A stretch of 32,677 bases of DNA from Legionella drancourtii LLAP12 (GTDB lineage Bacteria; Pseudomonadota; Gammaproteobacteria; Legionellales; Legionellaceae), in contig NZ_JH413835.1 in NCBI RefSeq assembly GCF_000162755.2, forward strand, positions 1 to 32,677, written 5' to 3'. The number at the start of each line of letters is the position of its first letter. Positions within the stretch are counted from its first letter, which is position 1. The notes below the pieces were generated by a model. That model was not told where the DNA came from. It saw nothing but the letters and a program-made list of their open reading frames with translations, and did no database searches. Shown one piece after another: positions 34-8,503 of this stretch. Both the position numbers and the translations under genes were made by a program.

Positions 34-252
34 ATGGCTAAAGTACAAAAATCTACAGATTCATCCAGCTTAGCTGAAGTCATTGACCGTATCTTGGATA
101 AAGGTATTGTTATTGATGTGTGGGCTAAAGTATCTCTGGTTGGTATTGAGTTGTTATCTATTGAGGCACGTGTTGTTATTGCTTCTGTGGAAACCTATTT
201 GAAGTATGCCGAGGCGATAGGTTTAACAGCTACAGCGTCACATCCAGCTTAA
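34..252 (+). CDS. gvpA: Gas vesicle major shell protein GvpA
   Basis: This 72-residue protein is the main structural subunit of the gas vesicle wall, assembling as a hydrophobic ribbed helix that excludes water but lets gas in. It has the classic GvpA body: the helix around LAEVIDRILDKG (residues 13-24), the beta segment with KVSLVGIELLSIEARVV, and the closing ASVETYLKYAEAIGLT stretch. The length matches the family. AGGAG at 22-26 lies seven bases before the ATG. It is the first gvp gene in the window, and its promoter must lie to the left. A strong hairpin follows directly, as often seen after gvpA genes, which need much more protein than the rest of the operon. The identification is essentially certain. 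Two further GvpA-family genes lie downstream (3220 and 3705). Confidence 0.97.
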   Translation: MAKVQKSTDSSSLAEVIDRILDKGIVIDVWAKVSLVGIELLSIEARVVIASVETYLKYAEAIGLTATASHPA

Positions 253-271
253 ATTAATAAGGATCTTTTTC

Positions 272-312
272 GATGAGGCCTTTTAGTTTATTTTGGCTAA
301 AAGGATCTCATC
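272..312 (+). promoter_or_regulatory. Intercistronic hairpin after gvpA
   Basis: Left arm GATGAG, then CCTTTTAG (272-286), pairs with CTAAAAGG, then CTCATC (297-312), with a small G/AT internal bulge and a ten-base loop. That gives 14 paired bases. No U-run follows, so a full terminator is unlikely. A partial terminator or an mRNA 3'-end stabiliser that raises gvpA message over the downstream genes is more likely (inference). Confidence 0.7.
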
Positions 313-357
313 TTAAATTTGGATAGCCTTATCGATATAAGAGAAAAGGAGAAACTC

Positions 358-702
358 ATGACACATTTAGTAAGTGACATGACCCGGCTTCGTTTTGAAA
401 TAACGAAAGGGCATAAAGCACGTATTCAATTAATGGATGATCTACAACATTTTGCAGATGATCTATCTTGTGAAGTAACAAAAACATTGCACAGCTTCAC
501 GGAATTACGTAAGAGAAAGGCTAAGCATGCAGCAGCAGAGCGTCGCGCATTTGTTGTTGATCTGCAACACAAAGTTAAAAATTTTCGTGATGATTTTGTG
601 ATGGAGTTTCAAAATGCTCGATGCGGTTGGTTAGGAGAGAGTCCTTCTCATACATTTACCAGCCACGCGATGGCAAAACCCAAAATGAAAAAAAAGAATT
701 AA
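358..702 (+). CDS. gvpC: GvpC-like gas vesicle outer scaffold protein (short, divergent)
   Basis: This is a 114-residue, highly charged, mostly helical protein. GvpC coats and stiffens the vesicle shell in cyanobacteria and haloarchaea, using amphipathic helices of about 33 residues. Residues 61-92 show a comparable unit: ERRAFVVDLQ, then a helix with aromatic residues at spaced positions (NFRDDF, MEF) ending QNARCGWLG. A looser copy may precede it (residues 26-58, with HFADDL and HSFTELRKR). The C-terminus is a basic tail of Lys residues. The position between gvpA and gvpN is the usual place for gvpC. The ATG at 358 is chosen because AAAAGGAG (about 345-351) sits just before it. An in-frame TTG at 319 lies inside the upstream hairpin region and has no ribosome binding site. 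The repeat is weak, so the assignment rests mainly on position and composition. Confidence 0.55.
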   Translation: MTHLVSDMTRLRFEITKGHKARIQLMDDLQHFADDLSCEVTKTLHSFTELRKRKAKHAAAERRAFVVDLQHKVKNFRDDFVMEFQNARCGWLGESPSHTFTSHAMAKPKMKKKN

Positions 703-730
703 CTAATAATATACTGAGGATAGTGATACA

Positions 731-7329: not shown

Positions 7330-8126
7330 ATAAGGCACTTTATCTTTTCTGCTTAACACCAGCATCTGATTTACCCATGATGGAGGGGGAGTTACTTCCA
7401 AATTTTAGCCCTTTATTTATTCATCCATTTCAAACGTTTAATGCAATATTAAGCTGGGTTCCAGCAAAAGAGTATCAAGAGCAATCGACAGACAGTAATT
7501 TGATTAACACAGAAGAATTCATGCAGCGGGTTTTTTTTCATGAATTAGTTGTTGAAAAGATCATGCGTGATGAGGCTGTTTTTCCAATTGGTTTTGGTAC
7601 GTTATTTTCTTCCATAGCCAGCCTCGAAGAACAGATTTTAACGCACCAAACGCTCATTTCTTCATGCCTTGCTAATCTAAACCAAAAAGATGAATATGCT
7701 GTACGGGTGTATTTGAATCAAGACAAAGCACTGGAGAGTCTACTGTCTGTAATGTTACAAGAACGAGAATCGTCCTGGGCATCTTCCTCACCAGGGGTTC
7801 AGTATCTGAAGAAACAGCAGTTGCACAATGAGATTCAGCGTAATCTTAATCAGCATCTAGGTGGTATGCTTGATGAGGTACTCAGTATGTTTCAGCGGCA
7901 TGCAACCGATTTTAAAAGTCGAGAGAATACCGCTCAATCATCTGATATTCATGGAACATCAATCCTTCACTGGGCTTTTCTAATTCCCAGGGTGGTGAGT
8001 TCCATATTCAAAGAACAAGTTGATTTGATGAATGCCAAGTATAATCCATTTGGATTACACTTTGTATTAACGGGACCATGGCCAGCGTATAGTTTTTGCA
8101 CTCTTCAATCAGTCGAAGCACCTTAG
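7326..8126 (+). CDS. gvpL: Gas vesicle protein GvpF/GvpL family (second copy)
   Basis: This 266-residue GvpF/L family member is diverged from the copy at 2180. It keeps the N-terminal ALYLFCLTP strand, a helical block around HELVVEKIMRDEAVFPIGFGTLF (corresponding to the MLPIRFG segment of the first copy), a long charged helical middle, and the C-terminal hallmark LHFVLTGPWPAYSF. The start codon overlaps the stop of the AAA+ gene (ATGA), a strong sign of coupled translation. Having several GvpF/L proteins is normal; Serratia carries three, here I see two. Whether it should be called gvpF2 or gvpL cannot be settled by eye. Confidence 0.9.
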   Translation: MNKALYLFCLTPASDLPMMEGELLPNFSPLFIHPFQTFNAILSWVPAKEYQEQSTDSNLINTEEFMQRVFFHELVVEKIMRDEAVFPIGFGTLFSSIASLEEQILTHQTLISSCLANLNQKDEYAVRVYLNQDKALESLLSVMLQERESSWASSSPGVQYLKKQQLHNEIQRNLNQHLGGMLDEVLSMFQRHATDFKSRENTAQSSDIHGTSILHWAFLIPRVVSSIFKEQVDLMNAKYNPFGLHFVLTGPWPAYSFCTLQSVEAP

Positions 8127-8139
8127 TGGGCCATCGTTA

Positions 8140-8162
8140 ATTTAGTCAGTATATGACTAAAT
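8140..8162 (+). promoter_or_regulatory. Intercistronic hairpin before the TPR-like gene
   Basis: ATTTAGTCA (8140-8148) and TGACTAAAT (8154-8162) form a perfect nine-base stem with a five-base loop, just upstream of the AAAGGAG of the next gene. No U-run follows, so this is likely a message-stabilising or attenuating hairpin, the third of its kind in the operon. Confidence 0.6.
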
Positions 8163-8194
8163 AGGAATTAAAATGTTAAACAAAGGAGATGATC

Positions 8195-8503
8195 ATGACT
8201 ACCAATATGAATGATTCTACAGTTAGAATAGAGGAAAGTTCATTTACAGCTACAGCAAATCCAGGTATCGAGCTGGTATTGCTAGGGCGGCTTCTTTTTA
8301 TGGCTCAGCAATATCTGGCTGAAGGTAATTTGCGGCAAGCAACAGAGATTTGCTGGAAACTCGTCAGTGATCACCCAGGAACGGTTGAGGCAGACGCAGC
8401 TAAGGGGATTTTGCTGGATTTGGCTGATTCTTATGAGCGTAATGATGAGCGACATATGGCACGAAGTATCTATGAACACTTGATGAATCTGGACAATGAT
8501 TGA
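8195..8503 (+). CDS. Small TPR-like protein ending the gas vesicle operon
   Basis: The 102-residue product has a disordered N-terminus of about 25 residues and then two helix pairs with tetratricopeptide character: YLAEGNLRQATEICWKLVSD and LADSYERNDERHMARSIYEH, each with the A/L/Y spacing and a loop ending in P or N. TPRs mediate protein contacts, so it may be an adaptor for vesicle proteins or the AAA+ enzyme (inference). I recognise no specific named family. AAAGGAG (8182-8188) gives ATG 8195 a six-base spacing; the in-frame ATG at 8189 overlaps that ribosome site and is unlikely. It lies 68 bases after the second gvpF/L gene on the same strand and is followed by a terminator-like hairpin, so it probably closes the operon. 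Confidence 0.75.
   Translation: MTTNMNDSTVRIEESSFTATANPGIELVLLGRLLFMAQQYLAEGNLRQATEICWKLVSDHPGTVEADAAKGILLDLADSYERNDERHMARSIYEHLMNLDND

What the first reader, a model, noticed from the sequence alone, without database searches (positions are those of the whole stretch)
34..8503. Complete-looking gas vesicle operon in a probable Legionella background
The sequence shows shell, cap, scaffold, MoxR ATPase, GvpF/G/K and chaperone genes in one tightly packed + strand block. The neighbourhood (FEZ-1-like B3 beta-lactamase, housekeeping genes) suggests Legionellaceae, which are intracellular parasites of protozoa and not known to me as gas-vesicle formers. Buoyancy in water, or a pressure/gas-filled structure used inside host vacuoles, are possibilities. 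The gene order follows the Serratia cluster (A-C-N-V-F-G-A2-K-A3-Y-H-F), which suggests a shared ancestor or horizontal transfer among gammaproteobacteria.
Basis: partly seen in the sequence, partly recalled or inferred. Interest (0 to 1): 0.85.

Follow-up and report, generated by a model that had tools for sequence, protein, structure and literature searches.

The report
Gas vesicle gene cluster in Legionella
A stretch of DNA that looks like a Legionella chromosome, a genus known as parasites of amoebae, carries an intact-looking set of genes for gas-filled flotation organelles, probably gained from another water bacterium; whether the cell makes them is untested.

Summary
Gas-vesicle genes were not found in any of 143 held genomes of that family. 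The acyl-CoA dehydrogenase gene that neighbours minE in three comparators (directly in two) is not in the window; other genes and the gvp cluster lie there. GvpN and CDC48 group with clusters of another gammaproteobacterial order, so horizontal gain is the best reading. Caveats: the window starts 33 bases before gvpA1; the sigma-54 regulator and kinase found in most comparable clusters are missing (lost, or beyond the contig edge); composition fits Legionella but is not diagnostic, so a chimeric contig is not excluded. 'Complete' holds only for structural and assembly genes. Most likely function: flotation. A role inside host vacuoles is untested. A known organelle in a surprising lineage.

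The parts
34..252 (+). gvpA1, main shell protein (72 aa)
   Evidence: NF006874 134.7 bits over cut-off 100; PDB shell protein 8gbs 105 bits; 74-92% to the GvpA1 of other clusters
358..702 (+). GvpC-position protein (114 aa from ATG 358 with AAGGAG upstream; ORF opens at TTG 319)
   Evidence: No family match; 31-37% to proteins at the same position in G426, G888, G821; repeats not above chance
835..1842 (+). gvpN, MoxR-type AAA ATPase (335 aa)
   Evidence: TIGR02640 329.6 bits over 266.8; Walker A found; 60-65% to G821, G888, G426
1852..2169 (+). GvpV-position protein (105 aa)
   Evidence: No family; 32-41% to proteins in the same place in G426, G888, G821, Methylocella
2147..2956 (+). gvpF1 (269 aa from ATG 2147; ORF opens at TTG 2072)
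   Evidence: Pfam GvpL_GvpF 187.4 bits; PDB gas vesicle proteins 6l5d, 4qsg
2984..3217 (+). gvpG (77 aa)
   Evidence: Pfam GvpG 59.8 bits
3220..3405 (+). gvpA2 (61 aa)
   Evidence: Pfam Gas_vesicle 60.9 bits; counterpart at the same place in related clusters
3395..3691 (+). gvpK (98 aa)
   Evidence: Pfam GvpK 107.8 bits
3705..4025 (+). gvpA3, GvpJ type by position (106 aa)
   Evidence: Pfam Gas_vesicle 61.1 bits; 49-65% to GvpA3 of other clusters
4000..4629 (+). GvpY-position protein of unknown family (209 aa)
   Evidence: No Pfam or NCBIfam match; longer matches of 32-43% to proteins in related clusters incl. an Atribacterota MAG
4652..5188 (+). Hsp20 / GvpH-position chaperone (178 aa)
   Evidence: Pfam HSP20 26.5 bits over 20.8; 50-51% to G426 and G888
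5191..7329 (+). CDC48/VCP-type double AAA ATPase (712 aa)
   Evidence: TIGR01243 872.4 bits over 802.65; Walker A and B motifs in both AAA domains; 61-66% to G426, G888, G974, G895, G876
7326..8126 (+). gvpF2 (266 aa)
   Evidence: Pfam GvpL_GvpF 140.1 bits
8189..8503 (+). small TPR protein (104 aa), last gene of the run
   Evidence: TPR_14 25.5 bits; 53% over 68 aa to a protein directly after CDC48 in the Methylocella cluster
8504..12685 (.). segment between the cluster and minE: FEZ-1-type B3 beta-lactamase 9176-10075, ArsC-like 10176-10562 (-), Tyr/Asn repeat protein 10727-11185 (-), APH-fold kinase 11451-12464
   Evidence: in G472 and L. adelaidensis an acyl-CoA dehydrogenase gene is next to minE, in G331 with one gene between
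12686..31504 (.). Legionella core block: minE, minD, guaB, guaA, tadA, glnD, map, FAD oxidoreductase (with gltBD and an ABC-F gene interposed)
   Evidence: synteny and identity to G472, G331 and L. adelaidensis

Best explanation
A horizontally acquired gas-vesicle cluster lies in the chromosome of an unnamed Legionella species, near minDE. Inferred working from established gas-vesicle biology: GvpA1 assembles into the ribbed gas-permeable shell; the two minor GvpA-fold proteins with GvpF1, GvpF2, GvpG and GvpK handle and nucleate it; the ATPase GvpN and GvpV extend bicones into cylinders; the GvpC-position protein stiffens the outside; Hsp20 and the CDC48 ATPase keep hydrophobic subunits soluble or recycle them. 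The product would make free-living cells float towards air-water interfaces. Shown here: gene content, open frames, genomic setting, kinship of GvpN and CDC48. Inferred: assembly, expression, buoyancy.
For: Family matches; the 13 structural/assembly genes seen in the relative G888 are all present in the same order; ATPase motifs present; Legionella synteny; not found in 143 of 143 held genomes of the family with two families, while the same families were found elsewhere (GvpN in 2 of 2 genomes; GvpF/L in 3 of 369 genomes of the class); GvpN groups with three genomes of another order (99/98) and CDC48 with two (96/93); cluster composition inside the Legionella range (delta* 59 against a mean of 57 over 26 control pieces), codon use correlated 0.97 with the flank. 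The Serratia deletion study assigns roles to most of these genes (PMC4982088, parts read).
Against: No promoter is visible (33 bases upstream only). No gvrA or gvrB homologue in the window, and both are required for vesicles in Serratia, as is GvpF3, also not found here. Composition is not diagnostic: 5 of 9 foreign clusters also fall inside the control ranges, and two (G974, G895) lie nearer in dinucleotides to the window's own flank than the cluster does. Not all genes share one nearest kin: before G888 and G821 were added, GvpF1, GvpK and GvpF2 scored best with Spartinivicinus and GvpA3 with Methylosinus. The joined tree of eight proteins gives the grouping with G888/G821 only 73/82. No expression data.
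Confidence: 0.66

Rival explanations
1. The contig is a chimera: a gas-vesicle cluster from another water bacterium was joined to Legionella DNA during assembly.
For: A single stretch with no whole genome held, both ends cut; no held relative in the family has the cluster; 5 of 9 foreign clusters also fit the Legionella composition ranges.
Against: GC, dinucleotide and tetranucleotide make-up of the cluster fall inside the Legionella range, while the two closest clusters (G426, G888) do not (delta* 130 and 108); codon use fits the flank (no foreign control); the segment abutting the cluster is itself Legionella-like (FEZ-1 type enzyme; APH-fold kinase with an 82% relative in the family).
Confidence: 0.15
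2. A cryptic or decaying cluster: structural genes persist but regulators and a third GvpF are gone and no vesicles form.
For: No gvrA or gvrB homologue in the window, although gvrA lies between the GvpY-position gene and Hsp20 in 5 of 5 clusters that keep this order; clusters without known production exist, for example Streptomyces coelicolor (PMC4982088).
Against: All 14 frames are open with tight spacing and ATPase motifs present; regulators lie upstream of gvpA1 in Methylosinus and Methylocella, a region not in the window.
Confidence: 0.2
3. The cluster makes gas vesicles, but their main use is inside amoeba hosts or in surface-film spread rather than free flotation.
For: Legionella lives in protists and at interfaces (general knowledge); nothing in the sequence excludes it.
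Against: No targeting or secretion gene was recognised in the run; no paper found (listings); the parts are those of ordinary flotation clusters.
Confidence: 0.08
4. An old Legionellales trait kept here and lost in the other species.
For: Composition fits Legionella; the GvpN branch is long.
Against: 0 of 143 held genomes (the order search returned the same number of genomes); GvpN and CDC48 group with another order.
Confidence: 0.05

Closest known systems
gvp clusters of genomes G426, G888 and G821 (unnamed; one gammaproteobacterial order)
   Same: Gene order A1-C-N-V-F1-G-A2-K-A3-Y-Hsp20-CDC48-F2 in G426 and G888, apart from the regulators; GvpN 60-65% in all three; CDC48 66% and 63% in G426 and G888
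   Different: G426 and G888 carry the sigma-54 regulator between Y and Hsp20 and a PAS kinase after F2; in G821 regulator, Hsp20 and CDC48 are divergent. The window has neither regulator and ends with a TPR gene
Methylosinus sp. C49 plasmid pMSC49b and Methylocella tundrae plasmid 2 clusters
   Same: GvpA, N, F, G, K, A3, Hsp20, Y-position protein and CDC48 in both; a TPR relative after CDC48 in Methylocella
   Different: Regulators and a second GvpF upstream of gvpA1; GvpA2- and GvpK-like parts in one reading frame; Hsp20 precedes Y; GC of the stretches 62-63%; plasmids of Alphaproteobacteria
Serratia sp. ATCC 39006 cluster (from the text of PMC4982088)
   Same: A1, A2, A3, C, N, V, F1, F2, G, K, H and a Y are named there; GvpZ lies between H and F2, the place of CDC48 here
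   Different: 19 genes in two operons with GvrA/B/C, GvpW, X and F3; whether GvpZ is a CDC48 protein was not settled; sequence not compared

Membership tests
Gas-vesicle gene cluster | Major shell protein GvpA | tested here: met
   NF006874 134.7 bits over 100
Gas-vesicle gene cluster | Assembly set GvpF/L, GvpG, GvpK, GvpN and minor GvpA homologues | tested here: met
Gas-vesicle gene cluster | Outer strengthening protein GvpC | tested here: inconclusive
   Position and 31-37% to same-place proteins; no family, repeats not above chance
Gas-vesicle gene cluster | Gas-filled, pressure-sensitive organelles in the cell | not testable with these tools
   needs cells
Serratia-type two-operon cluster | GvrA, GvrB, GvrC regulators and GvpF3 | tested here: not met
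   No hit in the window for seven regulator proteins of three relatives at E 1e-3 (Serratia's own not used); only two GvpF/L. Region left of base 1 unseen
Legionella chromosome | Core gene order and identity of Legionella | tested here: met
   minE-minD, guaB-guaA-tadA, glnD order as in L. adelaidensis NZ_LR134438.1, 57-85% protein identity for minE and five others; G472 83-95% for minE, minD, guaB, guaA, tadA, glnD, map
Legionella chromosome | rRNA or rpoB identity of the source | not testable with these tools
   No Rfam match in the window; no whole genome held

The most novel reading that the evidence does not exclude
A Legionella lineage has gained working gas vesicles under new control (the sigma-54 regulator gone, two operons merged into one) and uses them in its life between amoebae and the water surface, which would link flotation to the ecology of spread in this genus.
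Probability: 0.15. Interest if true: 0.85.

Novelty: new member of a known kind. Interest (0 to 1): 0.62.

Why it matters
Gas vesicles are known mainly from free-living aquatic microbes. The genes in a Legionella, a genus of protist parasites important in water systems, would raise a testable question about how these cells place themselves in the water column, and would be a case of an intracellular lineage gaining a complex organelle, with the usual built-in regulators missing from the visible cluster. No paper linking the two was seen in the search listings (searches list 40 of 581 and 15 of 134 papers; most subscription papers are not held).

Tried and rejected
The genome-contig scan with GvpN used rarely shared peptide stretches and gave only an Atribacterota and a Planctomycetota MAG; it says nothing about nearest kin. 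Viral-contig scans with GvpF1 and GlnD gave no relative. Megablast of bases 1-8600 against plasmids gave nothing; the five phage records listed of 242 match only part of CDC48 (0 of 242 cover 80%). Promoter-like sites were fewer than in shuffles (26 against a mean of 32.5) and were not used. Repeats near the cluster suggest no att site; no tRNA. Weak Pfam hints (TraB for the relative of the Y-position protein, T4SS for GvpV) lie below cut-offs and were not used. On re-check I found the composition evidence weaker than first thought (5 of 9 foreign clusters inside the range) and moved the chimera rival from 0.12 to 0.15 and the main reading from 0.68 to 0.66.

Full report
What is there. Bases 34-8503 hold 14 open reading frames on the + strand with gaps of -26 to +132 bases. 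Ten match gas-vesicle or expected partner families above curated cut-offs; the last gene passes a TPR cut-off narrowly. Three have no family, but the same places in related clusters hold relatives: the GvpC-position protein (31-37% in G426, G888, G821), the GvpV-position protein (32-41% in these and Methylocella) and the GvpY-position protein (longer matches 32-43%). The shell protein matches the solved gas vesicle proteins 8gbs and 7r1c at 105 and 94 bits.

Whose genome. No whole genome is held for the window, and both ends are cut: base 1 lies 33 bases before gvpA1 and an EptA/B-like gene runs off the right end. Megablast of 8504-32677 against 72,556 plasmid records matched one record, from Legionella adelaidensis, which carries guaA, guaB, glnD and tadA. 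Its gene order (acyl-CoA dehydrogenase, minE, minD, three genes, guaB, guaA, tadA, glnD) fits the window, with protein identities of 76% MinE, 84% MinD, 85% GuaB, 79% GuaA, 64% TadA and 57% GlnD. G472 in turn keeps the L. adelaidensis order beyond minE: acyl-CoA dehydrogenase, hydrolase, DUF1189, ugpC, ugpE, permease, clcA at 41-68%. The beta-lactamase beside the cluster has FEZ-1 as its best PDB match; FEZ-1 was described in L. gormanii (PMC9879626, passages). The Legionella background is therefore well supported, as a species apart from G472; no rRNA is in the window.

Is it inherited in the family? GvpN (TIGR02640) was found in 0 of 143 genomes of G472's family at E 1e-40, with 0 over the cut-off (at most 16 candidates per genome were scored); GvpF/L (PF06386) in 0 of 143 at E 0.001; the order search returned the same number of genomes, 143, and again 0. 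The tool warned that nothing rang in the named controls of these searches; the same families were found elsewhere, GvpN in 2 of 2 genomes and GvpF/L in 3 of 369 genomes of the class. One genome per species is held, so presence in other strains is not excluded.

Where it sits. In G472 and L. adelaidensis the acyl-CoA dehydrogenase gene (fadE, recalled name) is next to minE; in G331 one 379-aa gene lies between them. That dehydrogenase has no match in the window. There minE is followed by an APH-fold kinase, a repeat protein, an ArsC-like gene, the FEZ-1-type gene and then the cluster. So the stretch left of minE is extra relative to these three. No tRNA or long repeat marks the junction, and no transposase was recognised among the ORFs scanned.

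Kinship of the cluster. In 281 genomes of the order of G426, 24 had GvpN at E 1e-60; three stand out at 60-64% (G426, G888, G821), the other 21 at 53-57%. The GvpN tree (34 rows) puts the window with these three at 99/98; the CDC48 tree (11 rows) with G426 and G888 at 96/93. A joined tree of eight proteins gives the grouping with G888 and G821 only 73/82. Against a single source: (12 loci) GvpF1, GvpK and GvpF2 scored best with Spartinivicinus and GvpA3 with Methylosinus. The window branch is long (0.86 changes per column in GvpN), so the donor is not sampled. Named relatives are plasmid clusters, among them Methylocella, Methylosinus, Spartinivicinus and Octadecabacter.

Composition. The cluster has GC 0.379; its dinucleotide distance to G472 is 59 and its tetranucleotide correlation 0.50, against 57 (31-102) and 0.51 (0.28-0.64) for 26 pieces of five other genomes of the family; G426 and G888 are at 130 and 108. 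Codon use correlates at 0.97 with the flank (no foreign control). Against over-reading: of nine foreign clusters tested, five (G974, G895, G824, Spartinivicinus, G002) also fall inside both control ranges, and G974 and G895 are nearer in dinucleotides to the window's own flank (42 and 39) than the cluster is (63). Composition fits residence but does not prove it.

What differs. In G426, G888, G876, G974 and G895 (5 of 5 clusters with this order) a sigma-54 activator lies between the Y-position gene and Hsp20; in four of them a PAS histidine kinase follows GvpF2, in G876 only a distant kinase match on the other strand was seen (domains of the G426 pair by Pfam). In G821 activator, Hsp20 and CDC48 are divergent; in Methylocella and Methylosinus the regulators precede gvpA1; G824 is cut, and Spartinivicinus shows none. 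Seven regulator proteins searched against the window gave no hit at 1e-3. The window thus has the two usual operons merged in one run without regulators, unless they lie left of base 1. In Serratia gvpA1, F1, G, A2, K, A3, F2, F3, gvrA and gvrB were required, and loss of gvpN or gvpV left small bicones (PMC4982088, first parts of sections 4 and 11). The window has counterparts of these structural genes except an F3; G888 also shows only two GvpF in the stretch fetched.

How it most likely works. By the Serratia genetics and the known GvpA shell, the set should build bicones and extend them to gas-filled cylinders that make cells float. Gene content, open frames and ATPase motifs are shown; assembly, expression and flotation are inferred. 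I found no assigned role for CDC48 in gas vesicles: of 8 papers holding both terms (listing) one was opened in passages, and it names Cdc48d only as a non-specific contaminant. Its place beside Hsp20 or the Y-position protein in related clusters, which is that of GvpZ in Serratia (between H and F2), suggests handling of aggregation-prone subunits; this is inference.

Novelty. The system is a known kind; the host lineage is new as far as these searches go: 0 of 143 genomes, and no paper on gas vesicles in Legionella seen in the listings (partly capped; the 8 papers that hold both words were judged by title and abstract start). The main text of PMC10344784, a survey of vesicle-forming species, does not contain the word Legionella; its supplementary list could not be opened.

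Noticed in passing
13904-20704 (-): One 2266-aa reading frame joins glutamate synthase large-subunit domains with a pyridine nucleotide oxidoreductase domain. It lies between minD and guaB, where G472 has no such gene; 8 of 143 genomes of the family matched at E 1e-200.
   Followed up: partly
31665-32675 (+, open at the right end): EptA/EptB-like phosphoethanolamine transferase cut by the window end.
   Followed up: no
10727-11185 (-): Protein rich in tyrosine- and asparagine-containing repeats with a signal-like start by eye; no Pfam match.
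   Followed up: no
11451-12464 (+): APH-fold kinase with about 41% relatives on six Legionella plasmid records and an 82% relative, with stops inside the match, in one genome of the family; a hint that the segment beside the cluster is accessory Legionella DNA.
   Followed up: partly
L080 5700-8000 and 10000-12250 (genome G426): The closest relative cluster is interrupted by two copies of the same element with an identical 578-aa transposase-like ORF (IS66-like, recalled), in gvpF1 and in the Y-position gene.
   Followed up: no
L114 (NZ_LR134438.1): A record labelled plasmid of L. adelaidensis holds guaBA, glnD, rpsB, tsf and other core genes, so it is probably a mislabelled chromosome piece.
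   Followed up: no
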